From Gibbula magus (taxonomy: Eukaryota > Mollusca > Gastropoda > Trochida > Trochidae): a stretch of 64,000 nt of DNA. The stretch's first letter is position 1. Every line of letters begins with the position of its first letter. The stretch covers positions 54,812,959 to 54,876,958 of the forward strand of contig OW388302.1 in the NCBI GenBank assembly GCA_936450465.1, in the 5' to 3' direction. A program made the translations under genes and the position numbers. Below are positions 4,519 through 60,987 of this stretch, in pieces. Under the pieces are notes generated by a model. It was given only the letters and a program-made list of their open reading frames with translations. It searched no databases and was not told the origin of the DNA.

Positions 4519-4638
4519 TCATGTTTTCTTGTTAGCGATGCCGTGGTTGTAATCCTCGAGGACATTGTCAAGATGGTCGTTGTGTTTCTTGAACTGGCGG
4601 GACTTCTTACCTCCTCCTTTCTTCCTCTTTACTGCCGA
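4519..4638 (-). CDS. GTF2E2: GTF2E2 coding exon 7 with stop codon
   Basis: 39 codons plus TGA at 4519-4521. The acceptor is ATATTTCAG. Encodes a Lys/Arg-rich stretch ([20 protein letters not shown]) followed by [19 protein letters not shown]. This matches the basic C-terminal region of TFIIE beta. The polyadenylation site is not obvious. Confidence 0.92.
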   Translation of the reverse strand, partial: SAVKRKKGGGKKSRQFKKHNDHLDNVLEDYNHGIANKKT

Positions 4639-7600
4639 CTGAAATATTATTGTGAAATCTCGATTTAAAACGAGCAGATTTATTATTGTAACATTCATGT
4701 AACACCATTACTGCCGGCAAGCGTATTGTTTGTGATAATATCAATGCCCTGATGACAGAGAAGGAGAATTCCATGATTTAAATTTTTTTACAATATACTG
4801 CTTGCCTGACATAATCGTCTCTTATAAACAAGTGTTGATTTAGTTGAAATCAGAGGACAGAAGTAAGATATAAGTTATCATCCAAAATCATTCTAAATTA
4901 GTTTTCAAAGAAAATTTTACATCTCTGAATACAACACTGCGATTAGAGAAGCAGAGCAGCATTGTGACATCATCATGTTTATGACATCACAGTGTTCTAT
5001 ATCATTTTACGTCAGCATTGTGAGTCATGTACTTGATGATGTCAAAGCAGTGGAAAACAGTTTTGGAAGATAAATTCTTTCTCCACCGGAAATATGGAGA
5101 AGACACTCACGACAGGTTTGGGTCCCATGTCTTGCATGGAGGTGATGCCGTGTTTGTCGAGATAATCCTCTATCTTCTTCTCGTCGAGACCTTCAACTGC
5201 CACACTACGCCACATCTTCTGAAACTCTGGTCAGAAATGATACAAAAGTTATTTAACAATACATACACCTCAGGATTTATACAGTACGTCAGGGTATTCC
5301 GGATCACTATTGAAAGAGCGACTGCACACGTAAGCAAAGATATTTTAAGAAAATCTAAAGACAATTTCTGTATAAGTTAACTTATATCAAAATAAGATAT
5401 CCTGGACCCATATTTTTGAAGCTCTCTTAGTGCTAAGATAGTCGTAAGTGCCAATCATTAACATTGACTTACGACTATCTTAGCACTAAGACAGCTTTGT
5501 AAATATGGGTCCAGGTGATCATGATTTAATAGTGAAAATTGACAAATAGAATCCTCCGCCGTTCAGCAGTTCTGGATCTTTTCAGGATATTCTGGATCAC
5601 GTGATAAAATGAGGTCTTGTCTAGCTATTAAGCCTGTTACGACAAAAAGGCGGAATTGTCAAACAGAATTAAAGATTGAATATTGAAATCGAATTTTCTG
5701 GAGAAGAAGTTGTTTAACGATTTAAGGGTGGACCCCCCTGCTAGTTTAATTGCACACATGTGTGAGAAATATTAATTATGATGTATATATTACAAATAAT
5801 AAGCATTGCAATTCAAAACAATATATTTCTTGTAAACAAATTTAACATTTACTACTTAGTAGACTGAATAGCGTTCTCGGACCAGAAAGACATGATTATT
5901 TGTAGATATTTGAAAATTACACAACATTGTTACCGGTAATATATTTTGTCAATTCAACAGTTATTAATTTTTTTCGGCCATTCGAAGTTATAATAACAGT
6001 CCCTAAGTTATGGTGATCCGGAACTAACTGAATTACGTTGTCCGATAAATTGTTTCTTAAAATATATGGCAGATATAAAAATCATTCGCATTGTAATTTA
6101 CAGGTGAAATGTTATGGTTAGCAAAGAAATGTTAACATTCAACAAGTTGACTTCTTAAAATGGGCTGTCCTGAATGAGTGACCTATTTCTGACACGCAAA
6201 CGACAGCTGACCACAATGATAGGTAGGGTGTGCTAGTAAACTCCTGTCTCCCATAAAGTGAAACAAATATCTCATCTTGAAGAACATTGACACAGCTTTA
6301 AAGGAATACCCTTACGCACTGTAGGTTGAAATTTACATAGGTTCTCATAATATAACCTTAGAAACCAGCTAGCCTTATTTTCACGGAAGCAAATGAAGAC
6401 ACATCACCCGAACAAAAATGCAACATGTTTATTAATTGTAAAAGTATTATTGCTCAGAAGGAAAGAGATATTCATGCGAATCATCAAGTTGAAACATCTT
6501 AATGTAAGGGGAGATAACTCTTCCCACCAAGAGCTCATTATCTCCCTTACACTGACAGCTTCAGTGCATAGGGGCGTGTATAGCTTAGAAACAGTGTTTG
6601 AAAGACATACCTATATAAATCCTACCCTATTACTATATAAAAGGAAAGGGATGTAACGACGAAACCACCCCATGCTCATTCAAACTCATATTTCGCATCA
6701 AAAAATATTTTTATGGCACCACATGTCCCACATCCAGGTTCTAGGGCCAATTAGCGAGAACGAAGGCCCTGAAACCTTGATATGGGACATTCCGGGTCAA
6801 CTGAATGTCAAGGTCATGAATGGCTGCTAGCGAACCGAGTGGCCAATGCATGACGATGATTTGAGACAAAATGCCGCAGTACAGTCGGAGAAATGATATG
6901 TAGGTGTTGTAATATTTATTTACATCTGTAGTTTCACTCTGCGGTTCGATTCTGCCGATACATAGGTGCTGTCAACATTGCTGGAATTAATAGACGATTT
7001 TAAAAGGTGAGTTTTCGCTGATTTTCGTGAGCGTCAAAATTGGCTTGAAAATGTGGCGGTAGCGATATACGGACTGTTTTGTAGCATAGCTTTTGAATTA
7101 ATGATCCGATTGTGACCATTTATAGCTCATTTTGTAGGGAAATCATTTAGCTGTCGTACCGTAGTCATCGGCTGTGCCATAAAAATAGTTTTGCATGCGA
7201 AATATGACTTTGAATGAGCATGGAGTGGTTTCGTCGTTACATCCCTTTCCTTTTATATAGTAATAGGGTAGGTTCTATAAAGGTATATGTCTTTCAAACA
7301 CTGTTTCTAAGCGATACACGCCCCTGTGCATAGACACTAAGCAAGTGGCACCAGTGCGGAGTAAACTCATGTTTCCTCCAGTGTGAGGGACCTTGGGGTA
7401 ATACTGGACTCCAATCTAGATCTCAATAAACATGTCAGCCAGCTGTCCAGATCATGTCATTTTCAGCTTCATAACATTGGGAAAATCAGGACATATTTGA
7501 CAAAGGAAGCCACTAAAGTACTGACACTATCTCTTATTATTTCAAGAATTGATTATTGCAACAACCTCCTCGCCAATTCTCCCAAAACTGTTATCAACCG

Positions 7601-10600
7601 AATTCAATCCATCCAGAATAAGGCAGCCAGACTGGTTACACTCTCTCCAAAATCTGACCACATCGACCCCATCCTTAAAGAACTCCATTGGCTCCCTGTT
7701 ACACAACGGATTAACTTCAAACTTCTGTGCTTTGCCTGTCAATGTCACTCTCAGACTGCTCCATCCTACCTCTGTGACCTTCTCCAGCCCTATGTTCCAT
7801 CCAGATCCCTCCGCTCTGAATCTCAACCAAAAATGTGCAGTTATGGACAACGAGCGTTCTCCCATGCAGCTGCCTATCAATGGAACAATCTCCCCCAAGA
7901 AATTCATACCTGCCCAACCTATACTTCTTTCAGATATTATCTAAAGACTCATTTATTCCGCCAATCCTTTGCCTGAACACTCTCGATTCTTCTCAGCGCT
8001 TTGAGCATGATATTTATCCTGGAAAGGCGCTATATAAGTGGACTATTATTATTATTATTGTGAATTGTTATACAGACAGGAAGAAGTCAGCATCCTTCAG
8101 ACTAGTTTCAATAAACATTTAGTAGTCTAACCATGGTCTGACACGGAGGAATGTTTCCCAGCTCTGTTAGTATAGGTCCACACAGCCTATAGTCAACAAG
8201 CAATCAGTACTTTTCAAGGACTCTTTGAAGCCATATGTTTTCAAGCTTGTCAAGGATGAGGAAAGTCACATTCAAGCCTTATTCTTTGGACATGGGTGAA
8301 TTCAGCCATCTTTTTTATCTCTAAGAACCTTGACACTACATTATGTACAATTTTGTCTGATTTTTTAATATAAAATGTTACAATGTTTTAAACACAATGC
8401 CAGCGTTACTGTGTATTTGAATCCCATCAATTTGTACATTTGAGCCCTATGGCTAATAACATGAATGTACAGATTCAAGTACTCATTAACAAAAGCATTT
8501 CACCAACACTGATGTTTATCTCCTCTATGATTATGGAGCAGACAGAATTGACAATATTAGAAGCCCAGCCTATTTTATAATGGCTGCCATAACTAGTGGA
8601 TAGAGTGAATACATGTTTTGATTTGAGTTTATGATGAACCATACCTTCATCTATAGAAAACTGGCAATACTTGTCATTGTAGAATAATACTTTCTTTTTG
8701 TCAATGGGCCGCACCACGTAGATGATGTTTTCTCCCAATTGCTGAAAAATAAAAGAGATTCAGTGTTTAATTTTTACTTAAAACACCAAAAATATTATAG
8801 ATTCACTGATCTCAAGTTACCCAAGTTACAAACCCTGAAGAACCTTAATTATAGGATTAAGGATTATTTTAAGGATTACTCTCAACAAGGCCTAAGAACG
8901 CTCTAAAAATAAATCACATTCTTTGGTGAGATATCAATCCCAAATTTATTTCTTATATTCCACCAGAAAGCAACTAAACCTTGAAATCCTAAGGGGCATC
9001 AGGCAGACTCTCCTCAATGTCCTCCATCAGTATTCCTTCCCGTCCATACAGATCTAACTACACCAGAAAGCAGCTACAAACCTTGAAGACCTTAGGAGCA
9101 TCAGGCAGACTCTCCTCAATTGTCCTCCATCAGTATTCCTCCCCGTCCGTACAGATCTAACCACACCAGAAAGCAGCTACAAACCGTGAAGACCTTAGGA
9201 GCATCAGGCAGACTCTCCTCAATGTCCTCCATCAGTATTCCTCCCCGTCCGTACAGATCTAACTACACCAGAAAGCAGCTACAAACCTTGAAGACCTTAG
9301 GAGCATCAGGCAGACTCTCCTCAATGTCCTCCATCAGTATACCTCCCCGTCCGTGCAAATCTAACCACACCAGAAAGCAGTTACAAACCTTGAAGACCTT
9401 AGGAGCATCAGGCAGACTCTCCTCAATGTCCTCCATCAGTATTCCTCCCCTTCCGTGCAAATCTAACTACACCAGAAAGCAGCTACAAACCTTGAAGACC
9501 TTAGGAGCATCAGGCAGACTCTCCTCAATGTCCTCCATCAGTATTCCTCCCCGTCCGTGCAGATCTAACTACACCAGAAAGCAGCTACAAACCTTGAAGA
9601 CCTTAGGAGCATCAGGCAGACTCTCCTCAATGTCCTCCATCAATATTCCTCCCCGTCCGTACAGATCTAACTACACCAGAAAGCAGCTACAAACCTTGAA
9701 GACCTTAGGAGCATCAGGCAGACTCTCCTCAATGTCCTCCATCAGTATTCCTCCCCGTCCGTACAGATCTAACTACACCAGAAAGCAGCTACAAACCTTG
9801 AAGACCTTAGGAGCATCAGGCAGACTCTCCTCAATGTCCTCCATCAGTATACCTCCCCGTCCGTGCAAATCTAACCACACCAGAAAGCAGTTACAAACCT
9901 TGAAGACCTTAGGAGCATCAGGCAGACTCTCCTCAATGTCCTCCATCAGTATTCCTCCCCTTCCGTGCAAATCTAACTACACCAGAAAGCAGCTACAAAC
10001 CTTGAAGACCTTAGGAGCATCAGGCAGACTCTCCTCAATGTCCTCCATCAGTATTCCTCCCCGTCCGTACAGATCTAACTACACCAGAAAGCAGCTACAA
10101 ACCTTGAAGACCTTAGGAGCATCAGGCAGACTCTCCTCAATGTCCTCCATCAGTATACCTCCCCGTCTGTGTAAATCTAACCACACCAGAAAGCAGTTAC
10201 AAACCTTGAAGACCTTAGGAGCATCAGGCAGACTCTCCTCAATGTCCTCCATCAGTATTCCTCCCCGTCCGTACAGATCTAACTACACCAGAAAGCAGCT
10301 ACAAACCTTGAAGACCTTAGGAGCATCAGGCAGACTCTCCTCAATGTCCTCCATCAGTATTCCTCCCCGTCTGTGCAGATCTAACTACACCAGAAAGCAG
10401 CTACAAACCTTGAAGACCTTAGGAGCATCAGGCAGACTCTCCTCAATGTCCTCCATCAGTATTCCTCCCCGCCCGTACAGATCTAACGACACCAGAAAGC
10501 AGCTACAAACCTTGAAAACCTTAGAAGCATCAGGCAGACTCTCCTCAATGTCCTCCATCAGTATTCCTCCCCGTCCGTAAAAGATCTAACCACACCAGAA

Positions 10601-13600
10601 AGCAGCTACAAACCTTGAAGACCTTAGGAGCATCAGGCAGACTCTCCTCAATGTCCTCCATCAGTATTCCTCCCCGTCCGTACAGATCTAACTACACCAG
10701 AAAGCAGCTACAAACCTTGAAGACCTTAGGAGCATCAGGCAGACTCTCCTCAATGTCCTCCATCAGTATACCTCCCCGTCCGTGCAAATCTAACCACACC
10801 AGAAAGCAGTTACAAACCTTGAAGACCTTAGGAGCATCAGGCAGACTCTCCTCAATGTCCTCCATCAGTATTCCTCCCCTTCCGTGCAAATCTAACTACA
10901 CCAGAAAGCAGCTACAAACCTTGAAGACCTTAGGAGCATCAGGCAGACTCTCCTCAATGTCCTCCATCAGTATTCCTCCCCGTCCGTGCAGATCTAACTA
11001 CACCAGAAAGCAGCTACAAACCTTGAAGACCTTAGGAGCATCAGGCAGACTCTCCTCAATGTCCTCCATCAGTATTCCTCCCCGTCCGTACAGATCTAAC
11101 TACACCAGAAAGCAGCTACAAACCTTGAAGACCTTAGGAGCATCAGGCAGACTCTCCTCAATGTCCTCCATCAGTATACCTCCCCGTCCGTGTAAATCTA
11201 ACCACACCAGAAAGCAGTTACAAACCTTGAAGACCTTAGGAGCATCAGGCAGACTCTCCTCAATGTCCTCCATCAGTATTCCTCCCCTTCCGTGCAAATC
11301 TAACTACACCAGAAAGCAGCTACAAACCTTGAAGACCTTAGGAGCATCAGGCAGACTCTCCTCAATGTCCTCCATCAGTATTCCTCCCCGTCCGTGCAGA
11401 TCTAACTACACCAGAAAGCAGCTACGAACCTTGAAGACCTTAGGAGCATCAGGCAGACTCTCCTCAATGTCCTCCATCAGTATTCCTCCCCGTCCGTACA
11501 GATCTAACTACACCAGAAAGCAGCTACAAACCTTGAAGACCTTAGGAGCATCAGGCAGACTCTCCTCAATGTCCTCCATCAGTATACCTCCCCGTCCGTG
11601 TAAATCTAACCACACCAGAAAGCAGTTACAAACCTTGAAGACCTTAGGAGCATCAGGCAGACTCTCCTCAATGTCCTCCATCAGTATACCTCCCCGTCCG
11701 TGCAAATCTAACTACACCAGAAAGCAGCTACAAACCTTGAAGACCTTAGGAGCATCAGGCAGACTCTCCTCAATGTCCTCCATCAGTATTCCTCCCCGTC
11801 CGTACAGATCTAACTACACCAGAAAGCAGCTACAAACCTTGAAGACCTTAGGAGCATCAGGCAGACTCTCCTCAATGTCCTCCATCAGTATTCCTCCCCG
11901 TCTGTGCAGATCTAACTACACCAGAAAGCAGCTACAAACCTTGAAGACCTTAGAAGCATCAGGCAGACTCTCCTCAATGTCCTCCATCAGTATTCCTCCC
12001 CGTCTGTGCAAATCTAACCACACCAGAAAGCAGCTACAAACCTTGAAGACCTTAGGAGCATCAGGCAGACTCTCCTCAATGTCCTCCATCAGTATTCCTC
12101 CCCGTCCGTGCAGATCTAACTACACCAGAAAGCAGCTACAAACCTTGAAGACCTTAGGAGCATCAGGCAGACTCTCCTCAATGTCCTCCATCAGTATTCC
12201 TCCCCGTCCGTACAGATCTAACTACACCAGAAAGCAGCTACAAACCTTGAAGACCTTAGGAGCATCAGGCAGACTCTCCTCAATGTCCTCCATCAGTATA
12301 CCTCCCCGTCCGTGTAAATCTAACCACACCAGAAAGCAGTTACAAACCTTGAAGACCTTAGGAGCATCAGGCAGACTCTCCTCAATGTCCTCCATCAGTA
12401 TACCTCCCCGTCCGTGCAAATCTAACTACACCAGAAAGCAGCTACAAACCTTGAAGACCTTAGGAGCATCAGGCAGACTCTCCTCAATGTCCTCCATCAG
12501 TATTCCTCCCCGTCCGTACAGATCTAACTACACCAGAAAGCAGCTACAAACCTTGAAGACCTTAGGAGCATCAGGCAGACTCTCCTCAATGTCCTCCATC
12601 AGTATTCCTCCCCGTCTGTGCAAATCTAACCACACCAGAAAGCAGCTACAAACCTTGAAGACCTTAGGAGCATCAGGCAGACTCTCCTCAATGTCCTCCA
12701 TCAGTATTCCTCCCCGTCCGTAAAAGATCTAACCACACCAGAAAGCAGCTACAAACCTTGAAGACCTTAGGAGCATCAGGCAGACTCTCCTCAATGTCCT
12801 CCATCAGTATTCCTCCCCGTCCGTACAGATCTAACTACACCAGAAAGCAGCTACAAACCTTGAAGACCTTAGGAGCATCAGGCAGACTCTCCTCAATGTC
12901 CTCCATCAGTATACCTCCCCGTCCGTGCAAATCTAACCACACCAGAAAGCAGTTACAAACCTTGAAGACCTTAGGAGCATCAGGCAGACTCTCCTCAATG
13001 TCCTCCATCAGTATTCCTCCCCTTCCGTGCAAATCTAACTACACCAGAAAGCAGCTACAAACCTTGAAGACCTTAGGAGCATCAGGCAGACTCTCCTCAA
13101 TGTCCTCCATCAGTATTCCTCCCCGTCCGTGCAGATCTAACTACACCAGAAAGCAGCTACAAACCTTGAAGACCTTAGGAGCATCAGGCAGACTCTCCTC
13201 AATGTCCTCCATCAGTATTCCTCCCCGTCCGTACAGATCTAACTACACCAGAAAGCAGCTACAAACCTTGAAGACCTTAGGAGCATCAGGCAGACTCTCC
13301 TCAATGTCCTCCATCAGTATACCTCCCCGTCCGTGTAAATCTAACCACACCAGAAAGCAGTTACAAACCTTGAAGACCTTAGGAGCATCAGGCAGACTCT
13401 CCTCAATGTCCTCCATCAGTATTCCTCCCCTTCCGTGCAAATCTAACTACACCAGAAAGCAGCTACAAACCTTGAAGACCTTAGGAGCATCAGGCAGACT
13501 CTCCTCAATGTCCTCCATCAGTATTCCTCCCCGTCCGTGCAGATCTAACTACACCAGAAAGCAGCTACGAACCTTGAAGACCTTAGGAGCATCAGGCAGA

Positions 13601-16600
13601 CTCTCCTCAATGTCCTCCATCAGTATTCCTCCCCGTCCGTACAGATCTAACTACACCAGAAAGCAGCTACAAACCTTGAAGACCTTAGGAGCATCAGGCA
13701 GACTCTCCTCAATGTCCTCCATCAGTATACCTCCCCGTCCGTGTAAATCTAACCACACCAGAAAGCAGTTACAAACCTTGAAGACCTTAGGAGCATCAGG
13801 CAGACTCTCCTCAATGTCCTCCATCAGTATACCTCCCCGTCCGTGCAAATCTAACTACACCAGAAAGCAGCTACAAACCTTGAAGACCTTAGAAGCATCA
13901 GGCAGACTCTCCTCAATGTCCTCCATCAGTATTCCTCCCCGTCCGTACAGATCTAACTACACCAGAAAGCAGCTACAAACCTTGAAGACCTTAGGAGCAT
14001 CAGGCAGACTCTCCTCAATGTCCTCCATCAGTATTCCTCCCCGTCTGTGCAGATCTAACTACACCAGAAAGCAGCTACAAACCTTGAAGACCTTAGAAGC
14101 ATCAGGCAGACTCTCCTCAATGTCCTCCATCAGTATTCCTCCCCGTCTGTGCAAATCTAACCACACCAGAAAGCAGCTACAAACCTTGAAGACCTTAGGA
14201 GCATCAGGCAGACTCTCCTCAATGTCCTCCATCAGTATTCCTCCCCGTCCGTGCAGATCTAACTACACCAGAAAGCAGCTACAAACCTTGAAGACCTTAG
14301 GAGCATCAGGCAGACTCTCCTCAATGTCCTCCATCAGTATTCCTCCCCGTCCGTACAGATCTAACTACACCAGAAAGCAGCTACAAACCTTGAAGACCTT
14401 AGGAGCATCAGGCAGACTCTCCTCAATGTCCTCCATCAGTATACCTCCCCGTCCGTGCAAATCTAACCACACCAGAAAGCAGCTACAAACCTTGAAGACC
14501 TTAGGAGCATCAGGCAGACTCTCCTCAATGTCCTCCATCAGTATACCTCCCCGTCCGTGCAAATCTAACTACACCAGAAAGCAGCTACAAACCTTGAAGA
14601 CCTTAGGAGCATCAGGCAGACTCTCCTCAATGTCCTCCATCAGTATTCCTCCCCGTCCGTACAGATCTAACTACACCAGAAAGCAGCTACAAACCTTGAA
14701 GACCTTAGGAGCATCAGGCAGACTCTCCTCAATGTCCTCCATCAGTATTCCTCCCCGTCTGTGCAGATCTAACTACACCAGAAAGCAGCTACAAACCTTG
14801 AAGACCTTAGAAGCATCAGGCAGACTCTCCTCAATGTCCTCCATCAGTATTCCTCCCCGTCTGTGCAAATCTAACCACACCAGAAAGCAGCTACAAACCT
14901 TGAAGACCTTAGGAGCATCAGGCAGACTCTCCTCAATGTCCTCCATCAGTATTCCTCCCCGTCCGTACAGATCTAACTACACCAGAAAGCAGCTACAAAC
15001 CTTGAAGACCTTAGGAGCATCAGGCAGACTCTCCTCAATGTCCTCCATCAGTATTCCTCCCCGTCCGTGCAAATCTAACCACACCAGAAAGCAGCTACAA
15101 ACCTTGAAGACCTTAGGAGCATCAGGCAGACTCTCCTCAATGTCCTCCATCAGTATTCCTCCCCGCCCGTACAGATCTAACTACACCAGAAAGCAGCTAC
15201 AAACCTTGAAGACCTTAGGAGCATCAGGCAGACTCTCCTCAATGTCCTCCATCAGTATTCCTCCCCGTCCGTAAAAGATCTAACCACACCAGAAAGCAGC
15301 TACAAACCTTGAAGACCTTAGGAGCATCAGGCAGACTCTCCTCAATGTCCTCCATCAGTATTCCTCCCGGTCCGTAAAAGATCTAACCACACCAGAAAGC
15401 AGCTACAAACCTTGAAGACCTTAGGAGCATCAGGCAGACTCTCCTCAATGTCCTCCATCAGTATTCCTCCCCGTCCGTGCAGATCGTAACTCTTGAGTAG
15501 CTTCATCAGAGACTTGCGGTCTCGAACTTCATACTTTGGCTTGAAGAGAAACTTCTTGATATTCCCACACTCTACCACTTTCACTTTAGGGTTGCTCAGT
15601 AACGCCTGTAAACCGAAGAAAATTATACAGTCTTAGCAGAAGGAACTACAAAGTATACACTCACTTAAAAACCAAAACAAGGATAAGGTTGACTAGGGGA
15701 CATGTTGGACGAGTTATTCAAGGCATCAGGCGGGCAGACTACGAATGTGGGTTGGAAGCTTGTGAATGAAGTGTCACTGCTGTCCCATGTAACTTTTAAC
15801 TTTTAACCCAAATTTTCATTTTAGTTAAATATTTATATTGTTTGTTGTGTGATTGAACGGGATTTGCGCTAAATCAATCAATGAATGTGCACTGCTCAAG
15901 TGACGGACCTCTGTCTGGAGCCAGTATCTCATACGACTTCCGATGTCCAATTGGTTTGTCTCGTCCAGAACTTCCTCGATGTCGAGTGGGTCAGTCTCTC
16001 CGTTCTGGTGTCGGATCTGAAGCATGCAACATAATACATCCACAGTTATTTTCCATTTTGATATTGCTAAACCTCCTTTGGATACCAATAAGCATGTTCA
16101 TCCAAATTCCTTTGACAGTTGTAACATAACTTTAATATAATATTTTAAATCCAAAAATCTTAACTTTGACTCGCAACAACTATCTTATGGAGGAAATAAG
16201 TACCCCACTGAGGACTTTCTGTGAGAAAGAAAGCACTTTGTACATGGATATTACAATGTAAAAGCTCAATGTACTGAAATCCATTACCCAAATTGCATGC
16301 TCATCTTGTGGCACTTTTTTTTGGATGACAATGATCATCATTTGATTACAGCAAGAATAGACTTAACCAAAGAATTTAATATCACCTTCATATGTTTAAC
16401 AATCTTGGCAAGGACTCCGAACTTGAACTGTGAGCTTCCCTGTGCTGTCTTGTAATTAAGCGGTGCCGAAGCTGAAGAGAAGAATTTACAGGAATATTAA
16501 TAATCATTTTAATAAACATTTAATATAAATGTTTCAGATAATATGTAACAGAAATAAGAACATCATTGCAATTGAGAATTTCTTAAATTTGAGACTTAAG

Positions 16601-19600
16601 GATGTCCGCTCCTTCCGGTTGAACTTCAAAAATGAAATATGATGAAGCAAAGCTTTTTTGTCATTTTTATTTACTTCATGATATTCCACATCGCCTAGAT
16701 ACTTTTAAAAAGCAAATAATGAAAATGTGACTTTAGAACCCCTAAAAAGTGCTTAAACAGCATAAATGGCCTAAATTTGACTAAAAAGGGAGGTTTTCAG
16801 GTACATTTTGTGTCAAAGCTTAAAAAAACCCACACTACCATATATATTTTTTCATCGATTTCGATAGGGGAACATGAACTTTGTAACATATCAAAAAAGG
16901 AAAAAAAGTTTAATACTAGAAATGTAGTATTTTAAAGTTTTTAGCACTTTATTTCTCATTTTCCCATAGACTCCCATGTTAAAATAGTACTTCTTACAGG
17001 CGTCATATCTCGAAAAAACCTACACTACCCCCTATTTTTTAATGCTGATTTTTCAATCATATACTTTGATCTTTTAAAAAATATAAGTTAGAAAAAAGTT
17101 TAATTCTATAAATTTGAGGAGTGAACATCCTTAAAAATGCCTACCTCGGTTCAGCATTCAGTGCGGGTAACGAAACACACCACCACAAAACTCAATATAC
17201 GCTATACGGGATTGTGGATTCGAACAGCTTAACCACCCACCCTACAGCCCAGACCTAGCCCCCAGTGACTACTTCCTGTTCAGAAACCTGAAATCCGCCC
17301 TACTTCGAAGGCACTTCCGGGAAAACAGCATAAATGGCCTAAATTTGACTAAAAAGGGAGGTTTTCAGGTACATTTTGTGTCAAAGCTTAAAAAAACCCA
17401 CACTACCATATATATTTTTTCATCGATTTCGATAGGGGAACATGAACTTTGTAACATATCAAAAAAGGAAAAAAAGTTTAATACTAGAAATGTAGTATTT
17501 TAAAGTTTTTAGCACTTTATTTCTCATTTTCCCATAGACTCCCATGTTAAAATTGTACTTCTTACAGGCGTCATATCTCGAAAAAACCTACACTACCCCC
17601 TATTTTTTAATGCTGATTTTTCAATCATATACTTTGATCTTTTAAAAAATATAAGTTAGAAAAAAAGTTTAATTCTATAAATTTGAGGAGCAAACATCCT
17701 TAAAAATGCCTACCTCGGTTCAGCATTCAGTGCGGGTAACGAAACACACCACCACAAAACTCAATATACGCTATACGGGATTGTGGATTCGAACAGCTTA
17801 ACCACCCACCCTACAGCCCAGACCTAGCCCCCAGTGACTACTTCCTGTTCAGAAACCTGAAATCCGCCCTACTTGGAAGGCACTTCCGGGATGACGAAGA
17901 CGTCAAAGCTGCCACAGAGGCGTGGTTAGGGGGGCAAACGGAAGACTTCTACAAAAGCGGCATCAAAAGTCTTAAAGAGAAATGGAATAAGTGTATTGAG
18001 GTGAAGGGTAACTATATTGAAAAATAAAAGTAAAAAATAGAGCCATGGGCTCTGTAGCTCATCAGGATTTGATTTATTATCTAAGGTTGAATATCTAAGT
18101 TATCTCAAGTAATACATTGTTAACAAGCAAAAAATAGGTTTTTAGATCATGACCCCTGTGACCCCATTTGGAGTCACGGGGTCATGAAATCTACAATTTA
18201 GAATCCCCATTGGCCAAGGAGTCTGCACACAACTTTTCAGCTCTCTAGAGCTTTTGGAACTTGAGAAGAAGATATGATAATAGGTTTTTAAAGATGTGAC
18301 CCCATTGACCCCATTTGGGGTCACGGAGTCACAAAATCTACAATTTAGAATCCCCATGGGCCAAGGAGTCTGCACACAACTTTTCAGCTCTCTAGACCTT
18401 TTGGAACTGGAGAAGAAGATGAAAATAGGTTTTTAAGGATGTGACCCCATTGACCCCATTTGGGGTCACGGGGTCACGAAATCTACAATTTAGAATCCCC
18501 ATTGGCCAAGGAGTATGCACACAACTTTTCACTCTCTAGACCTTTGGAACTGGAGAAGAAGATGAAAATAGGTTTTTAAGGATGTGACCCGTGACCCCAT
18601 TTAGGGTCACAGGGTCACGAAATCTACAATTTAGAATCCCAATGGGCCAAGGAGTCTGCACACAACTTTTCAGCTCTCTAGAACTTTTGGAACTGGAGAA
18701 GAAGATGAAAATAGGTATCTAAGGATGTGACCCCTGTGACCCCATTTGGGGTCATGGGGTCAAGAGATCTACAATTTAGAATCCCCATGGGCCAAGGAGT
18801 CTGCACAAAATTTTTCAGCTCTCTAGACCTTTTGGAACTGGAGAAGAAGATGAAAATAGGTTTTTAAGGATGTGACCCCTGAGACCCCATTTGGGGTCAC
18901 GGGGTCACGAAATCTACAATTTAGAATCCCCATGGGCCAAGGAGTATGCACACAACTTTTCAGCTCTCTAGAACTTTTGGAACTGGAGAAGAAGATGAAA
19001 ATAGGTTTCTAAGGATGTGACCCCTGTGACCCCATTTGGGGTCATGGGGTCACGAGATCTACAATTTAGAATCCCCATGGGCCAAGGAGTCTTTACACAA
19101 CTTTTCAGCTCTCTAGACCTTTTGGAACTGGAGAAGAAGATGAAAATAGGTTTTTAAGGATGTGACCCCTGTGACCCCATTTGGGGTCATGGGGTCACGA
19201 AATCTACAATTTAGAATCCCCATTGGCCAAGGAGTCTGCACATAAAATTTCAGCTCTGTAGAGTCATTGGTTCTGGAGAAGAAGTCGAAAAAGTGAAAAG
19301 TTTACGGATGGACGGACGGATGGACGGACGGACGGATGGACGGATGAGCTAAAAATTGACTACGCGAGTTGGTTTTATATTGAAGTTGCAACACTTATTG
19401 AACGCCCCTCGTACATCAACTGAATCAGTTGAACGAGTAATCTCCTAAACTGTATATATAATAGTACGGTAGTGAGAATAATCAATACATCCCGTCCGTT
19501 ACATATTGTGAAATACTGAAGATGATACTGAGCACTACATTTTCTGCAACTTCGATGCTGAAACACTTACACTTTGGTTTTGGCTCCGAAGATTTGATCT

Positions 19601-19721
19601 TTTGTTTCTTTGATTTGTGTTCGTTCTCATCTTTCGACTTGTGCTTCCTCTTCTCCACTGACGGTTGAGCTTTAGCTCTCTGTAAAAACTTGTTCCGCTC
19701 TTTCAAAAGTTCAGGATCCAT
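4519..19721 (-). CDS. GTF2E2: Transcription initiation factor IIE subunit beta (complete gene, 7 coding exons)
   Basis: TFIIE beta pairs with TFIIE alpha, binds promoter DNA in the RNA polymerase II pre-initiation complex and helps recruit and regulate TFIIH. I joined seven minus-strand exons at GT-AG sites: 19571-19721, 16386-16471, 15909-16016, 15411-15605, 8645-8741, 5111-5226 and 4519-4638. They total 873 bp: 290 codons plus TGA. Phases agree at every junction, and the length is close to the roughly 291-residue animal protein. Recognisable segments are the start [12 protein letters not shown], then [81 protein letters not shown] and the basic C-terminus [15 protein letters not shown]. These cover the Lys/Ser-rich N-tail, the tandem winged helices and the C-terminal basic region. 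A possible 5'UTR acceptor (TTCTAATAG) lies 4 bp upstream of the ATG. Introns are heavily loaded with repeats, most unusually at the exon 4/intron 4 boundary. The gene looks intact. Confidence 0.95.
5111..5226 (-). CDS. GTF2E2: GTF2E2 coding exon 6
   Basis: 116 bp, residues 213 (split Glu) to 251. The acceptor is TGACCAG and the donor GTGAGT. Encodes [20 protein letters not shown] then [18 protein letters not shown]. The FQK.WRSV and GI.SMQ..GPK motifs are characteristic of TFIIE beta. Confidence 0.94.
5401..5515. repeat. Near-perfect 50-bp-arm hairpin in intron 5
   Basis: CCTGGACCCATATTT begins the left arm and AAATATGGGTCCAGG ends the right arm. The inner arms (TTAGTGCTAAGATAGTCGTA and its reverse complement) match exactly. 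The loop is about 16 bp. It is a compact foldback element; related inner sequence (GCTAAGATAGTC) occurs near 4409. Confidence 0.9.
6505..6553. repeat. Short hairpin with GGGAGATAA motif
   Basis: GTAAGGGGAGATAACTCTT on the left faces AAGAGCTCATTATCTCCCTT on the right in inverted orientation. I recognise this motif as common in molluscan repeats; that is weak support for the taxonomic call. Confidence 0.55.
6563..7333. mobile_element. MITE with about 150-bp terminal inverted repeats (intron 5)
   Basis: Left TIR 6565-6715 starts TGCATAGGGGCGTGTATAGC; right TIR about 7185-7333 ends CGATACACGCCCCTGTGCAT. The arms match over about 150 bp with small differences, including AAGGGATGTAACGACGAAAC inverted on the right. 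The roughly 470-bp centre encodes nothing. Its right end abuts the truncated LINE, so one may have inserted beside the other. No clear target-site duplication could be defined. Confidence 0.85.
7340..8062 (+). mobile_element. 5'-truncated LINE (L2/CR1-like), C-terminal RT part
   Basis: An open frame over 7383-7976 encodes the C-terminal part of a non-LTR retrotransposon reverse transcriptase: [20 protein letters not shown], then the [10 protein letters not shown] segment, LKELHWLPV and a final WNNLPQEI...[10 protein letters not shown]. These motifs are typical of the region after the RT fingers and palm in L2/CR1/jockey-type elements. The 3' tail ends GGCGCTATATAAGTGGAC followed by (ATT)n, as in L2-like elements. 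The catalytic RT core, endonuclease and 5' half are absent. It is inserted in intron 5 opposite to GTF2E2. The frame is open, which suggests a fairly recent insertion. Confidence 0.85.
8645..8741 (-). CDS. GTF2E2: GTF2E2 coding exon 5
   Basis: 97 bp, residues 181-212 plus one base. The acceptor is ATTTTTCAG and the donor GTATGG. Encodes [20 protein letters not shown] and [12 protein letters not shown] in the second winged helix. It lies beyond the minisatellite, about 6.7 kb from exon 4. Confidence 0.94.
8962..15486. repeat. 102-bp minisatellite derived from the GTF2E2 exon 4/intron 4 junction, about 64 copies
   Basis: Head-to-tail 102-bp units. Read on the minus strand, each unit holds 72 bp of exon 4 (24 codons, [20 protein letters not shown]) and 30 bp of intron 4 starting with the donor GTTTGT. 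Unit variants (TAACTAC/TAACCAC, CCGTAC/CCGTGC/CTGTGC, TATTCCT/TATACCT, TTAGGAG/TTAGAAG) recur in fixed order, giving higher-order repeats. A few units carry an extra base (CCGTAAAAGATC at about 10577, 12719, 15271 and 15374). The leftmost unit (8962) is divergent, and a decayed trace (GTTACAAACCCTGAAG) is at about 8826. The right end runs directly into exon 4. Confidence 0.97.
15411..15605 (-). CDS. GTF2E2: GTF2E2 coding exon 4 (parent of the 102-bp array)
   Basis: 195 bp, residues 116-180, phase 0 on both sides. The acceptor is GGTTTACAG and the donor GTTTGT. Encodes the end of the first winged helix and the start of the second, including [20 protein letters not shown] and [20 protein letters not shown]. 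The last 72 bp (residues 157-180) together with the first 30 bp of intron 4 form the unit that is tandemly amplified downstream. Splicing at this first donor gives a normal-length protein. Reading past it gives a frameshift and a stop at 15342, because the next unit carries one extra base. Confidence 0.93.
15606..15908 (-). other. GTF2E2 intron 3
   Basis: A 303-bp intron with GTCCGT donor and TTTACAG acceptor. I see no repeats or other features in it. Confidence 0.85.
15909..16016 (-). CDS. GTF2E2: GTF2E2 coding exon 3
   Basis: 108 bp, residues 80-115, phase 0 on both sides. Encodes [20 protein letters not shown] then [16 protein letters not shown]. This is the core of the first winged helix and is strongly recognisable against animal TFIIE beta. 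The acceptor is GCTTCAG and the donor GTCCGT. Confidence 0.95.
16386..16471 (-). CDS. GTF2E2: GTF2E2 coding exon 2
   Basis: 86 bp, residues 51-79. The acceptor is TCTTCTCTTCAG and the donor GTGATA. Encodes [18 protein letters not shown] and [10 protein letters not shown], the start of the first winged helix. The T/CT split serine codon joins it in phase to exon 1. Confidence 0.93.
16756..17891. repeat. Tandem duplication, about 568-bp period, two copies
   Basis: The sequence from AACAGCATAAATGGCCTAAA (16756) through a mariner fragment to CACTTCCGGGA (about 17321) is repeated immediately at 17324-17891. The copies are nearly identical (TCGAAGG versus TGGAAGG; GTGAACATCC versus CAAACATCC). The first copy is cut inside the transposase, and only the second continues to its stop codon. 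It lies in GTF2E2 intron 1. Confidence 0.9.
17172..17323 (+). pseudogene. Mariner transposase fragment, duplicated copy
   Basis: Encodes [20 protein letters not shown] and [18 protein letters not shown], a piece of mariner transposase around the third catalytic Asp (SPDLAPSD). It stops at the 568-bp duplication breakpoint. Confidence 0.85.
17745..18027 (+). pseudogene. Mariner transposase C-terminal fragment
   Basis: Open to a TAA at 18025-18027. Encodes [20 protein letters not shown], then [16 protein letters not shown] and a tail ending [12 protein letters not shown]. These are the hallmarks of the C-terminal third of a mariner (DDD-type) transposase, including the SPDLAPSD catalytic Asp. 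The first two catalytic Asps and the helix-turn-helix domain are missing, so it is dead. It lies in intron 1, opposite in orientation to GTF2E2. Confidence 0.9.
18028..19350. repeat. Dispersed repeat containing a 145-bp tandem array (8 copies)
   Basis: Starts with AATAGAGCCATGGGCTCTGT, as at 1905. From about 18135 to 19290 a unit of about 145 bp is repeated eight times: the conserved TACAATTTAGAATCC occurs at about 18192, 18339, 18487, 18627, 18772, 18917, 19062 and 19206. Each unit carries a GACCCCATTTGGGGTC palindrome and GGAGAAGAAGATGAAAATAG. The end is GTGAAAAGTTTACGGATGGA plus a (GGAC)n stretch and GAGCTAAAAATTGA. Confidence 0.88.
19306..19346. repeat. (GGAC)n/(GGAT)n microsatellite
   Basis: About ten tetranucleotide repeats at the end of the dispersed repeat, about 220 bp from exon 1 of GTF2E2. 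Confidence 0.9.
19571..19721 (-). CDS. GTF2E2: GTF2E2 coding exon 1
   Basis: Encodes residues 1-50 plus one base. Begins [20 protein letters not shown] and continues as a Lys/Ser-rich tail, as in other animal TFIIE beta proteins. The donor is a consensus GTAAGT at 19570. The start is fixed by the conserved MDP..L.ER N-terminus. Confidence 0.93.
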
Positions 19722-23544: not shown

Positions 23545-25612
23545 ATACTCCATCCTATTTATCATACTGAAAACACACACCTCCTGGGAAAGGGATTTCC
23601 TTTGGGGACTAATATAAAGCAAAAAGGGGTTTGGATTGTTTTGGATTGTTTTGGGGGGAAAGATACTAAAAATGCTCATTTTATAGAAATTAGGAATCTG
23701 ATTCACTCGTTACTTTCTATCATACATAGGGAATAAGAAGAAATGCATATATAGTACATTTTAACTGTCTACATCGCTGGGAACTAATAGCCCGGAAAAC
23801 GTCATTTTACATGATGGCTATAAGGCAAATTCGGGGTTTTCCGGGCTATTACCAGAGTATATATAGAGAGACGAATCCTATTTATCATACTGAAAACACA
23901 CACCTCCTGGGAAAGGGATTTCCTTTGGGGACTAATATAAAGCAAAAAGGGGCTTGGATTGTTTTGGGGGGAAAGATACTAAAAATGCTCATTTTATAGA
24001 AATTAGGAATCTGATTCACTCGTTACTTTCTATCATACATAGGGAATAAGAAGAAATGCATATATAGTACATTTTAACTGTCTACATCGCTGGGAACTAA
24101 TAGCCCGGAAAACGTCATTTTACATGATGGCTATAAGGCAAATTCGGGGTTTTCCGGGCTATTACCAGAGTATATATAGAGAGACGAATCCTATTTATCA
24201 TACTGAAAACACACACCTCCTGGGAAAGGGATTTCCTTTGGGGACTAATATAAAGCAAAAAGGGGCTTGGATTGTTTTGGGGGGAAAGATACTGAAAATG
24301 CTCATTTTATAGAAATTAGGAATCTGATTCACTCGTTACTTTCTATCATACATAGGGAATAAGAAGAAATGCATATATAGTACATTTTAACTTTCTAATT
24401 CGCTGGGAACTAATAGGCCGGAAAACGTCATTTTACATGATGGCTATAAGGCAAATTCGGGGTTTTCCGGGCTATTACCAGAGTATATATAGAGAGACGA
24501 ATCCTATTTATCATACTGAAAACACACACCTCCTGGGAAAGGGATTTCCTTTGGGGACTATTATAAAGCAAAAAGGGGCTTGGATTGTTTTGGGGGGAAA
24601 GATACTGAAAATGCTCATTTTATTGTAATTAGGAATCTGATTCACTCGTTACTTTCTATCATACATAGGGAATAAGAAGAAATGCATATATAGTACATTT
24701 TAACTGTCTACATCGCTGGGAACTAATAGCCCGGAAAACGTCATTTTACATGATGGCTATAAGGCAAATTCGGGGTTTTCCGGGCTATTACCAGAGTATA
24801 TATAGAGAGACGAATCCTATTTATCATACTGAAAACACACACCTCCTGGGAAAGGGATTTCCTTTGGGGACTATTATAAAGCAAAAAGGGGCTTGGATTG
24901 TTTTGGGGGGAAAGATACTGAAAATGCTCATTTTATTGTAATTAGGAATCTGATTCACTCGTTACTTTCTATCATACATAGGGAATAAGAAGAAATGCAT
25001 ATATAGTACATTTTAACTGTCTAATTCGCTGGGAACTAATAGGCCGGAAAACGTCATTTTACATGATGGCTATAAGGCAAATTCGGGGTTTTCCGGGCTA
25101 TTACCAGAGTATATATAGAGAGACGAATCCTATTTATCATACTGAAAACACACACCTCCTGGGAAAGGGATTTCCTTTGGGGACTATTATAAAGCAAAAA
25201 GGGGCTTGGATTGTTTTGGGGGGAAAGATACTAAAAATGCTCATTTTATTGAAATTAGGATTCTGATTCACTCGTTACTTTCTATCATACATAGGGAATA
25301 AGAAGAAATGCATATATAGTACATTTTAACTGTCTAATTCGCTGGGAACTAATAGGCCGGAAAACGTCCTTTTACATGATGGCTATAAGGCAAATTCGGG
25401 GTTTTCCGGGCTATTACCAGAGTATATATAGAGAGACGAATCCTATTTATCATACTGAAAACACACACCTCCTGGGAAAGGGATTTCCTTTGGGGACTAT
25501 TATAAAGCAAAAAGGGGCTTGGATTGTTTTGGGGGGAAAGATACTGAAAATGCTCATTTTATTGTAATTAGGAATCTGATTCACTCGTTACTTTCTATCA
25601 TACATAGGGAAT
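23545..25612 (+). repeat. 313-bp direct tandem repeat, about 6-7 copies
   Basis: Units start at 313-bp intervals (for example at 23811, 24124, 24437, 24750, 25063 and 25376). Each contains TACATGATGGCTATAAGGCA, TATATATAGAGAGACGAATC and CACACACCTCCTGGGAAAGG. The 62-67-codon open frame in each unit is a by-product of the repeat and matches no family I know. Confidence 0.93.
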
Positions 25613-26129
25613 AAGAAAAAATGCATATATATGTATATATGTGTGTTTTCAGTATGATAAATAGGATTCGTCTCTCTATATATACTCTGGTAATAGCCCG
25701 GAAAACCCCGAATTTGCCTTATAGCAATCATGTAAAATGACGTTTTCCGGCCTATTAGTTCCCAGCGAATTAGACAGTTAAAATGCATATATAGTACATT
25801 TTAACTGTCTAATTCCCTCAGAACTAATAACCCGGAAAATGTCATTTTACATGATGGCTATACGGCTATTACCAGAGTATATAAAATGTACTATATATGC
25901 ATTTCTTCTTATTCCCTATGTATGAGTCACTCATTACATTTTATCATACCTCGGGAATAAGAAAAAATGCATATAGACAGTTAAAATGTACTATATATGC
26001 ATTTCTTCTTATTCCCTATGTATGAGTCACTCATTACATTTTATCAGACCTCGGGAATAAGAAAAAATGCATATATATTATATTTTAACTGTCTAATTCG
26101 CTATGTATGAGTCATGCACTCATTACATT

Positions 26130-26880
26130 TTATTCGTCTCCCTATATATACTCTGGTAATAGCCCGGAAAACCCCGAATTTGCCTTATAGCCATCATGTA
26201 AAATGACGTTTTCCGGCCTATTAGTTCTGAGGGAATTAGACAGTTAAAATGTACTATATATGCATTTCTTCTTATTCCCTATGTATGATAGAAAGTAACG
26301 AGTGAATCAGAATCCTAATTTCAATAAAATGAGCATTTTTAGTATCTTTCCCCCCAAAACAATCCAAGCCCCTTTTTGCTTTATCATAGTCCCCAAAGGA
26401 AATCCCTTTCCCAGGAGGTGTGTGTTTTCAGTATGATAAATAGGATTCGTCTCCCTATATATACTCTGGTAATAGCCCGGAAAACCCCGAATTTGCCTTA
26501 TAGCCATCATGTAAAATGACGTTTTCCGGCCTATTAGTTCTGAGGGAATTAGACAGTTAAAATGTACTATATATGCATTTCTTCTTATTCCCTATGTATG
26601 ATAGAAAGTAACGAGTGAATCAGAATCCTAATTTCAATAAAATGAGCATTTTTAGTATCTTTCCCCCCAAAACAATCCAAGCCCCTTTTTGCTTTATCAT
26701 AGTCCCCAAAGGAAATCCCTTTCCCAGGAGGTGTGTGTTTTCAGTATGATAAATAGGATTCGTCTCCCTATATATACTCTGGTAATAGCCCGGAAAACCC
26801 CGAATTTGCCTTATAGCCATCATGTAAAATGACGTTTTCCGGGCTATTAGTTCCCAGCGAATTAGACAGTTAAAATATAA
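26130..26880 (-). repeat. Inverted copies of the 313-bp unit
   Basis: Two full copies of the same 313-bp unit in reverse orientation (offset 313 bp between 26307 and 26620) plus partial copies at about 25640-25780 and 26130-26230. With the plus-strand array they form a large imperfect inverted repeat. Confidence 0.9.
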
Positions 26881-27334
26881 TATATATGCATTTTTTCTTA
26901 TTCCCGAGGTCTGATAAAATGTAATGAGTGACTCATACATAGGGAATAAGAAGAAATGCATATATACTACATTTTAACTGTCTATATGCATTTTTTCTTA
27001 TTCCCGAGGTCTGATAAAATGTAATGAGTGACTCATACATAGGGAATAAGAAGAAATGCATATATAGTACATTTTAACTGTCTATATGCATTTTTTCTTA
27101 TTCCCGGGGTCTGATAAAATGTAATGAGTGACTCATACATAGGGAATAAGAAAAAATGCATATATAGTACATTTTAACTGTCTAAATCGCTGGGAACTAA
27201 TGTTTCGTAATCATATTTCGGTTCAGTTCCGATCCTACTTTTCGAATTTTATATTCCTCCAATGAAATGTATGACATGCGAAGTTACCTAAAATACCAAA
27301 AAGTAATAGCCCGGGCTCCGGCCTATTACCAGAT

Positions 27335-29699: not shown

Positions 29700-31010
29700 C
29701 TAAGAGGGTTGAACCCTTCTTGGTCTGGTTGGGGGGACCACCTTCGCCCGAGCGAACACTTGTGGCCCCAGCCTAGAGATGCCCTCCAGATCAGCTGTGA
29801 AGACATCCCGTAGGTAATGGTTGGCGAAGACCTCTGACGAACGACAAAAACACCCCGCCATGACATCCGAAACCGCGATGTTGCAGTGGTAAGCCATCGT
29901 GGCTGACACTGCCCTGATCTCATGAGGGTTGGACTGCGAAGGGGAAGGCAGGTCCGCGGCCTTGTACGCATCGATGACCGCCGACCTCAGGTACACCCCC
30001 AACGCTCGCTTATCTAGCTCCTTAGTACTTCTCGGCGAATGAGGTAAAACAGACGACGCCTGCCATCTCTCAACCTGTTGAACGTACACCCTCAGGGCCC
30101 TCACCGGACACAGAGAGAGATCCACCTCATCTGAGTCAGAACCCAAAGGCGGAATAGAGAAAGTACGGCCCGCTTCATCAGCCGCCTGGTTTTTGCAGAC
30201 AAAGTCGGGAGCTAAACCAAGAAAAGCTGAACCTCCCTCCCTGACCTCAAAGCGTAGAAGCTCCGCTTGCAAGGCATGGATCTCAGAAATCCGCGCTGCG
30301 GAGGCCATGGCCACCAGAAATATGACCTTGATGGTGAGAGGGAGGAGGGGTACGTCAGAAAGCGGTTCATACGTATCAGAGCGCAGAAGGTTGAGCACAA
30401 CTGCTAAGTCCCACTCAGGAGGACGAAGCTTCGTCCTGCCGTCCACAGAACGGAAGGTTTTGACAAGGTCCTTGAGTACCGACACATCCAACCCTGGTGA
30501 CCTCTTCCTGAGTACGGAGAGGACAGCAGACATGTTGGTGTTAATCGATGACGCCTTAAGATGCCTGGAGTTGCGTAGGTATACGAAGTACTCCGCCACC
30601 TGAGGAACTGAGGCCTCTGCTGGATTGAAATCCCTCTGAACACAGAAAGAGGCGAAGGCCTGCCACTGGAAATCATAGAGTTTCCTAGTGGTCTTCCTAT
30701 GAGAGGTAGCTATGGCATTGGATACGCACCTTGAGTATCCACTGCTCCTTAGCCCTCTTTTAATACAAGCCAAGCGTGAAGGCAGAACACCTGAGGGTTC
30801 TCGTGTAGCCTTCCGCTTGGCCTGCTGAGGAGCAGATCCCTCCGCGACTGAATCGGAACAGGTTCCTGAAAACAGTCGCCGGAGAGGAACGAACCACGGT
30901 CGGGCTGGCCACCACGGGGCGACCAGAAGACGACGAAGAACCCGAGTTGTCCCTCTCTTGGCTACAACTTGGGAGAGGATGGCCGGCGGCGGAAAAGCAT
31001 AGGCGTCCAT
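29700..31010 (-). CDS. DIRS tyrosine recombinase ORF (intact frame, fused to the end of the pol frame)
   Basis: A 436-codon open frame. The first about 50 residues (AFPPPAILSQVV, LLVAPWWPARPWFVPLRRL) belong to the end of the RT/RH/MT polyprotein. An indel relative to the plus-strand copies fuses them to the recombinase frame (AEGSAPQQAKRK onward). The recombinase has an N-terminal DNA-binding part (RKTTRKLYDFQWQAFASFC), the box I arginine (SAARISEIHAL), the HxxR motif in HEIRAVSATMAYH and the tyrosine nucleophile in FANHYLRD. The R-H-R-Y catalytic set is therefore present. In DIRS elements this enzyme integrates a circular DNA intermediate instead of a DDE integrase. This is the only copy of the recombinase in the window without nonsense codons. 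Confidence 0.85.
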   Translation of the reverse strand: MDAYAFPPPAILSQVVAKRGTTRVLRRLLVAPWWPARPWFVPLRRLFSGTCSDSVAEGSAPQQAKRKATREPSGVLPSRLACIKRGLRSSGYSRCVSNAIATSHRKTTRKLYDFQWQAFASFCVQRDFNPAEASVPQVAEYFVYLRNSRHLKASSINTNMSAVLSVLRKRSPGLDVSVLKDLVKTFRSVDGRTKLRPPEWDLAVVLNLLRSDTYEPLSDVPLLPLTIKVIFLVAMASAARISEIHALQAELLRFEVREGGSAFLGLAPDFVCKNQAADEAGRTFSIPPLGSDSDEVDLSLCPVRALRVYVQQVERWQASSVLPHSPRSTKELDKRALGVYLRSAVIDAYKAADLPSPSQSNPHEIRAVSATMAYHCNIAVSDVMAGCFCRSSEVFANHYLRDVFTADLEGISRLGPQVFARAKVVPPTRPRRVQPS

Positions 31011-54785: not shown

Positions 54786-54788
54786 CTC

Positions 54789-57784: not shown

Positions 57785-57867
57785 ACGCTTTTGGGACTTT
57801 TTGTAAATAAACAGGGTTTACATTGCTTACTCTCGTGTCTGTTGGTTTTTTCTTTAACTTCGTTTTG

Positions 57868-57868
<1 letters not shown>

Positions 57869-57898
<30 letters not shown>
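57869..57898. repeat. Poly-C tract at the A/B junction
   Basis: A run of 30 C after CTTCGTTTTGA, followed by TCATAGTCACTCGTCCGGG. It marks the tandem junction. Confidence 0.9.
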
Positions 57899-57900
<2 letters not shown>

Positions 57901-57906
57901 ATAGTC

Positions 57907-60979: not shown

Positions 60980-60987
60980 TCATAGTC

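What the first reader, a model, noticed from the sequence alone, without database searches (positions are those of the whole stretch)
8962..15605. A conserved general transcription factor exon end and its splice donor amplified into a 64-copy minisatellite
The array unit is exactly the last 72 bp of GTF2E2 exon 4 plus the first 30 bp of intron 4. The array runs directly into exon 4. At the junction, exonic GATCGTAACT and intronic GATCTAACTAC share a short homology (GATC.TAACT), which could have seeded the first duplication. Birth of a large minisatellite from a splice junction of an essential gene is unusual.
Basis: partly seen in the sequence, partly recalled or inferred. Interest (0 to 1): 0.9.

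Follow-up and report, generated by a model that had tools for sequence, protein, structure and literature searches.

The report
Snail exon-end minisatellite with 64 donors
In an abalone-like snail, the end of one exon of a basic transcription gene, with its splice signal, has been copied in a row into 63 extra copies; it looks like a very large case of an oddity described before in lancelets, and of the 64 near-identical splice signals only the first gives the normal protein.

Summary
The minus strand carries an intact GTF2E2 (TFIIE-beta) gene (7 coding exons, 290 aa; nearest listed protein Haliotis rubra, 88%). Exon 4 runs into an array of 102/103-bp units at 8961-15491: the real exon end plus 63 copies, 64 donors. 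Two details need correction: the unit is about 80 exonic plus 22 intronic nt (not 72+30), and the "intronic GATCTAACTAC" supposed to have seeded the duplication is the copied exon with one base lost; native intron at the far edge lacks it. The array has 21-unit block structure, a homogenised middle and a decayed last copy. It is best read as a "mirage" minisatellite, the class of exon-intron-boundary arrays described in amphioxus, here in a mollusc and larger than the 2-7 copies given in the passages I read. Of the 64 donors only the first keeps the frame; donors 2-64 all stop at codon 203. Published human minigene work predicts use of the first of two equal donors under exon definition, so the array most likely sits passively in intron 4; a second, in-frame GT 18 nt downstream is a caveat. 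No RNA, reads or relatives' DNA could be examined. New member of a known kind.

The parts
15411..15605 (-). GTF2E2 exon 4 (195 nt, phase 0); its last ~80 nt are copy 1 of the repeat unit
   Evidence: gene model; homology
8961..15491 (-). tandem array of 102/103-bp units: exon 4 end + donor + start of intron 4; 64 donors in all
15405..15410 (-). first splice donor (AAG|GTTTGT), the only one of the 64 that keeps the normal reading frame
15391..15392 (-). in-frame GT (CTG|GTGTGG) 18 nt beyond donor 1; scores above donor 1 on a recalled matrix; its use would add 18 nt and leave the frame open (296 aa); 21 of 63 copies have this site
8980..15308 (-). donor-bearing ends of copies 2 to 64 (last exon-like base 15308 down to 8980); over all 64 donors 61 read GTTTGT, 2 GTTCGT, 1 (distal-most) GTTTAG
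8824..8847 (-). possible decayed relic of a further copy (21 of 24 aligned columns identical, two mismatches, one gap)
   Evidence: not significant with loose gap costs
8645..8741 (-). exon 5, acceptor TTTTTCAG
15909..16016 (-). exon 3
16386..16471 (-). exon 2
19571..19721 (-). exon 1, coding part from ATG
5111..5226 (-). exon 6
4519..4638 (-). exon 7, coding part to stop

Best explanation
It is a mirage-type minisatellite: a segment across the exon 4/intron 4 boundary of an intact GTF2E2 gene was tandemly duplicated, then expanded in single units and in multi-unit blocks (shown: block periodicity; inferred: unequal exchange or slippage as the cause). The copies lie inside intron 4 and leave with it (inferred). 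The upstream-most donor, the real exon 4 end, is used because exon definition from the exon 4 acceptor picks the nearest of equal donors (inferred from published human minigene work). The array is then mainly a passenger that lengthens intron 4 to 6,669 nt, with a latent cost: each of the other 63 copied donors gives a premature stop.
For: Array anatomy and contiguity with exon 4. Intact seven-exon gene, all six introns GT-AG, and a protein that runs across the exon 4-5 junction as in Haliotis rubra (...DAAKVFK|QLGEH..., no insert). Donor 1 alone keeps the frame; donors 2-64 stop at codon 203 in 63 of 63 cases. 60 of 64 donors, the real one included, have the same score on a recalled consensus matrix; the others score lower. 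Tandem turnover: 23 unit types among 63 copies; of nine lags tested, lag 21 has 19 of 42 identical pairs against at most 11 in 5,000 permutations; a 1,224-bp exact repeat at lag 2,143; copy 64 the most changed of the 102-bp copies (7 of 75 nt). Carranza et al. 2022 (PMC9225289, abstract, passages and one section): with two identical strong donors and 365-nt flanking introns the upstream donor was used exclusively in five minigenes. Amphioxus mirages in Adh3 and globin genes are said not to disturb regular splicing (PMC3087553, passages; likewise Adh and TnC in PMC3902484, passages).
Against: No RNA was available, so donor choice is inferred. The donor is middling: the gene's six real donors rank 2, 11, 14, 37 (exon 4), 103 and 121 of 1,009 GTs on the recalled matrix, and an in-frame GT 18 nt downstream in unit 2 scores higher (2.48 against 1.61; 21 of 63 copies have it). 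In Carranza et al. weakened donor pairs in the larger exons gave exon skipping, and without matching for strength about 60% of 4,171 human donor-competition events, and most in each architecture class, favoured the downstream donor. In lancelet PGBD5 two repeats were annotated as an extra exon and the splicing there is unsettled. Silent variants are over-represented in the copies (9 of 16, P 0.004-0.02; 8 of 15, P 0.011-0.041, without one doubly changed codon), which a purely non-coding passenger does not predict, though conversion with the real exon would.
Confidence: 0.78

Rival explanations
1. Splicing-neutral by construction: the unit begins at GT and ends at AAG, so each included copy is itself a GT...AG intron of exactly one unit; recursive or exon-internal splicing between any two copies restores the normal mRNA, and the array is tolerated whichever donor is used first.
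For: 62 of 63 units start GT and end AG; the CAAG|GT acceptor scores (-1.53 to -0.48) lie above that of the gene's weakest real acceptor, exon 7, -2.09; the AGGT-duplication model of intron gain is established (PMC4974935, abstract).
Against: In the one unit listed, this acceptor ranks only 283 of 1,142 AGs on a recalled matrix, and an AG 9 nt upstream (0.41, rank 125) and a TTAG in the junction (1.09, rank 52) score better; no RNA evidence.
Confidence: 0.12
2. Near-donor isoform: splicing uses the in-frame GT 18 nt beyond donor 1, alone or beside it, and makes a 296-aa TFIIE-beta with six extra residues at the exon 4-5 junction.
For: Site CTG|GTGTGG scores above donor 1 on a recalled matrix and the frame stays open to the normal stop.
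Against: The matrix is recalled and human-like; H. rubra and eight other molluscan proteins in the alignment have no insert there, though they need not share the array; no RNA.
Confidence: 0.05
3. Cassette-exon reservoir: copies act as optional 78-nt in-frame exons using the TAG of the junction as acceptor.
For: 41 of 63 copies have TAG there and in 40 of these 41 the 78-nt cassette is in frame and open; silent excess among variants.
Against: The TAG acceptor scores -0.23 while the nearby TTAG, in all 63 copies, scores 0.82-2.5 and would give an out-of-frame 74-nt cassette in 102-bp units; 21 copies read TGG and one neither; only about 24 nt lie between successive cassettes; H. rubra protein has no such insert.
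Confidence: 0.03
4. Assembly artefact: copy number inflated from one or a few units.
For: Tandem arrays are prone to assembly error; no reads could be examined.
Against: 23 distinct unit types in an ordered pattern, single-copy types near both ends and a changed distal copy are not made by repeating one unit. The exact copy number may still be off.
Confidence: 0.04

Closest known systems
Mirage minisatellites of amphioxus (Adh3, globins BflGb6/BflGb9, TnC, PGBD5)
   Same: Tandem copies of an exon-intron boundary at the real boundary, splice signals in many copies, interior homogenised and cluster edge excluded; unit size in the reported range (10-160 bp)
   Different: Mollusc, not cephalochordate; 63 extra copies against 6 and 3 repeat units in two BflGb6 haplotypes, a duplicate in BflGb9, and 2 or 7 and 3 or 6 repeats in PGBD5; multi-unit block pattern. 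Copy numbers in Adh3 and TnC were not seen
[quoted passage not shown] potato RdRp case PMC4974935, abstract seen)
   Same: Duplication across a boundary or an AGGT can supply new GT and AG
   Different: No new intron is evident: the protein is colinear with relatives here
Ordinary intronic VNTRs/minisatellites
   Same: Array anatomy and turnover
   Different: The unit contains coding sequence and the real donor, and the first copy is the exon itself

Membership tests
Mirage minisatellite | Tandem array whose unit spans an exon-intron boundary | tested here: met
Mirage minisatellite | Array abuts the real boundary, which is its first copy | tested here: met
   exon 4 end 15411 is copy 1
Mirage minisatellite | Copies carry AG/GT splice signals | tested here: met
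   donor GTTTGT in 61 of 64, GTTCGT in 2, GTTTAG in 1
Mirage minisatellite | Homogenised interior, divergent cluster edge | tested here: met
   102-bp units 4-61 differ from the exon at 0-4 of 75 nt, unit 62 at 2, unit 64 at 7 (the five 103-bp units were not aligned in that count)
Mirage minisatellite | Regular splicing of the mRNA is not disturbed | not testable with these tools
   no RNA; protein conservation only
Mirage minisatellite | Length instability between haplotypes or cells | not testable with these tools
   one assembly only
Intron gain by tandem duplication | A new intron absent from relatives | tested here: not met
   protein colinear with nine molluscan relatives across exon 4/5; relatives' gene structures not seen

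The most novel reading that the evidence does not exclude
The array is kept harmless by its own design and stays in genetic exchange with the coding exon: each unit is a removable GT...AG intron, so splicing can correct any donor choice, while conversion between the exon and its 63 copies passes exon-tested (mostly silent) variants into the array, making a coding exon part of a satellite in concerted evolution.
Probability: 0.13. Interest if true: 0.78.

Novelty: new member of a known kind. Interest (0 to 1): 0.46.

Why it matters
It would carry a phenomenon that, in the papers I could read, is tied to lancelets into molluscs, in a general transcription factor gene and at a size that makes it a natural experiment: 64 near-identical donors in one transcript, of which one keeps the frame. 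Its splicing would test directly whether nearness to the exon's own acceptor suffices to choose a donor, and whether boundary duplications feed intron gain. It also warns that gene predictors may stumble at such loci.

Tried and rejected
Seed microhomology (GATC.TAACT): rejected, the 'intronic' half is the copied exon. Antisense protein: the plus strand of the array has open frames of 494, 732 and 868 aa; searched with the 494-aa frame only, none of the 7,991 candidates scored; taken as a by-product of 102 = 3 x 34. Structured RNA: two units folded at z -1.54, 11 of 200 shuffles as good; no Rfam family at its gathering score in the window. Selection on copies as coding sequence: shared variants show no third-position excess (3 of 9), but silent against replacement is 9:7 over the 58 units of 102 bp, 6:3 in units 4-61 (56 units), 3:5 in units 62 and 64; one silent change shares a codon with a replacement in copy 64, without it 8:7; the five 103-bp units were left out, the grouping was chosen after looking; left open. 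Clustering of interior variable columns (9 of 12 in columns 22-51, P 0.0007) was chosen after the fact and is unexplained. Relic copy: score 31 against maxima of 29 in 2,000 and 30 in 1,000 shuffles and 19 in 265 windows of other introns with strict gap costs; with looser costs 11 of 1,000 and 220 of 1,000 shuffles were as good and other introns scored higher: possible only. Block lags: of nine lags tested 21 stands out; 4, 7, 14 and 25 were reached by 20-53 of 5,000 permutations, 3, 10, 11 and 17 by many. Species: GTF2E2 nearest Haliotis rubra 88% among the 120 listed of 652; a DIRS-like reverse transcriptase (label recalled) nearest Haliotis asinina, 72% over 82% of the query; abalone or close vetigastropod, species open. 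The host genome could not be searched.

Papers: PMC3087553, PMC3902484, PMC12783039, PMC6171432 and PMC3862624 by passages; PMC9225289 abstract, passages and section 5; PMC4974935 abstract; others from listings only. The original Adh3 mirage paper (Nucl Acids Res 2002, cited in PMC3087553) and two PNAS papers on intron creation were not held.
Full report
What is there. The minus strand of 4519-19721 holds the full coding part of a GTF2E2 gene: seven exons (19721-19571, 16471-16386, 16016-15909, 15605-15411, 8741-8645, 5226-5111, 4638-4519), all six introns GT-AG, 873 nt including the stop, 290 aa. The protein matches TFIIE_beta and TFA2_Winged_2 above cut-off, TFIIE subunit beta in the PDB over residues 1-283 and, best of the 120 listed of 652 matches, Haliotis rubra GTF2E2 at 88% over its whole length; the next named ones are Lottia, Patella, Lymnaea, Physella and Babylonia at 61-65%. 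The organism is thus an abalone or a close vetigastropod; a reverse transcriptase from the window again finds Haliotis first (H. asinina, 72% over 82% of the query). No near-identical GTF2E2 was among those listed.

The array. From 15491 down to 8961 the exon 4 end repeats with a period of 102 bp. Cut at the donor it has 64 members: the real exon end and 63 copies, 58 of 102 bp and 5 of 103 bp. A typical copy holds 75 exonic nt (GATCTGCACGG...GGTCTTCAAG), then GTTTGTAGCTGCTTTCTGGTG (21 nt of intron) and a six-base link, mostly TAGTTA or TGGTTA (41 and 21 of 63). The last bases of the link match the exon just upstream of GATC (AGTTACGATC) with the C missing, so the copied segment is about 80 exonic and 21-22 intronic nt. 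Native intron at the far edge continues CTGGTG|GAATATAAG. The 'intronic GATCTAACTAC' of the finding is hence the start of the next copy and cannot have seeded the duplication.

History. Seven copies (13, 20, 24, 34, 41, 45, 59) equal the real exon over its last 75 nt. The 63 copies fall into 23 types. At a distance of 21 units 19 of 42 pairs are identical, against at most 11 in 5,000 permutations; eight other lags tested were weaker or not distinct; 11 successive units (17-27 and 38-48) are the same in order, and the longest exact repeat is 1,224 bp. The array therefore grew or was homogenised in blocks. Copy 64 at the far edge has 7 changes in 75 nt, among them a stop, and the changed donor GTTTAG; copies 62 and 63 carry private changes. 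A 24-column match 113 nt beyond the array may be a relic; it stands out with strict gap costs but not with loose ones. Of the 58 copies of 102 bp, 54 keep the proline codon where H. rubra has alanine and 4 have serine, so the present copies postdate that change or were homogenised to it; this rests on one protein of the nearest relative.

What it does to the gene. Of the 64 donors only the first keeps the frame; for the other 63 it stops at codon 203, within the first extra unit. On a recalled human-like matrix 60 of 64 donors, the real one included, have the same score. Strength cannot single out the right copy; position can. In a human study, five minigenes with two identical strong donors in one exon and 365-nt flanking introns used the upstream one exclusively; weakened pairs kept that preference in the M and S exon constructs and the larger L and XL ones preferentially skipped the exon (PMC9225289, abstract and passages). 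Against that, across all 4,171 catalogued human donor-competition events about 60% favour the downstream donor, and only after matching for strength do 60% favour the upstream one. I did not see the length that separates short from long introns there; here intron 3 has 303 nt and intron 4 6,669. Exon 4 is 195 nt with donor 1, 298 with donor 2, 401 with donor 3. The main reading follows: exon definition chooses donor 1 and the array leaves with intron 4. That choice is inferred; the anatomy, the frame and the tandem structure are shown.

A caveat next to donor 1. In 21 of 63 copies, unit 2 among them, the junction holds CTG|GTGTGG, 18 nt beyond the donor, with a higher score (2.48 against 1.61) on the recalled matrix. 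From unit 2 it would add 18 nt in frame and leave a 296-aa protein. The nine molluscan relatives aligned have no such insert, but they need not have the array.

A second way out. Because the unit starts with GT and ends with AG (62 of 63), an included copy is a GT-AG intron of exactly one unit, and splicing between any two copies would restore the normal message. The AAG scores low as an acceptor, though above the gene's weakest real one, and two other AGs in the unit score better. This is the AGGT logic of intron gain by tandem duplication (PMC4974935, abstract). It is a rival, or an addition, that nascent RNA could settle.

Signs for and against neutrality. Distinct variants in the 58 copies of 102 bp, against the real exon, are 9 silent and 7 replacement, with 23-29% silent expected under the five mutation models tried (P 0.004-0.02); units 4-61: 6 and 3 (P 0.007-0.02); units 62 and 64: 3 and 5 (P 0.28-0.42). 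One silent change shares a codon with a replacement in copy 64; without it 8 and 7 (P 0.011-0.041). Numbers are small and the split was made after looking. If real, exchange between the exon under selection and the array is the simplest cause. By codon position there is no third-base excess among shared variants (3 of 9).

Known kind. Tandem repeats across exon-intron boundaries were named 'mirages' in the amphioxus Adh3 gene and found in amphioxus globin genes (units about 150-160 bp; 6 and 3 repeats in two haplotypes of BflGb6), with regular splicing suggested by RT-PCR and cluster edges left out of homogenisation (PMC3087553, passages). PGBD5 and troponin C are further lancelet cases, PGBD5 with 2 or 7 copies of 60 bp and 3 or 6 of 108 bp depending on the assembly and with unsettled splicing (PMC3902484, passages). 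The present array meets the four defining features that sequence can test; two need RNA or several individuals. I found no mollusc case in the listings nor in the passages of two mollusc papers from them; these cover open-licence papers only and few were opened, so this is no proof of absence. An earthworm paper mentions fourth-exon duplications that do not appear in the transcript (PMC12783039, passages), which may be akin.

Context. Tandem arrays with units of 20 bp or more make up about 26% of the window (eight intervals merged by hand, summed), including one of 145-bp units in intron 1 of the same gene and one of 28-bp units over 4.3 kb. In such a genome an array at an exon edge is less surprising; that it is tolerated in a general transcription factor gene is the interesting part.

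Verdict. A large mirage-type minisatellite in a molluscan GTF2E2 gene; a new member of a known kind. RNA and population data are the missing evidence.

Noticed in passing
window 18131-19291: Array of 8 x 145 bp in intron 1 of the same gene, with GGGGTCAC-type motifs inside the unit.
   Followed up: no
window 34136-38459: About 154 copies of a 28-bp unit beside minus-strand, interrupted DIRS-like frames at 29700-33824 (label recalled).
   Followed up: no
window 53061-63956: DIRS-like frames (label recalled) repeated about every 3.09 kb: one longer copy and two partial ones, with a run of 30 C at 57869; nearest named relative of the reverse transcriptase frame is from Haliotis asinina, 72% over 82% of the query.
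   Followed up: partly
window 23552-27184: Arrays with 313-bp and 100-bp units; the 100-bp consensus units at 25882 and 26883 read by eye as reverse complements of each other.
   Followed up: no
window 49310-50428: Two adjoining minus-strand frames that look like a Tc1/mariner transposase (label from memory).
   Followed up: no
window 9096-15274, plus strand: Antisense frames of 494, 732 and 868 aa run open through the array; the 494-aa frame found no homologs.
   Followed up: partly
window 7365-7976, plus strand: End of a LINE-like reverse transcriptase followed by ATT repeats, inside intron 5 of GTF2E2 (label from memory).
   Followed up: no
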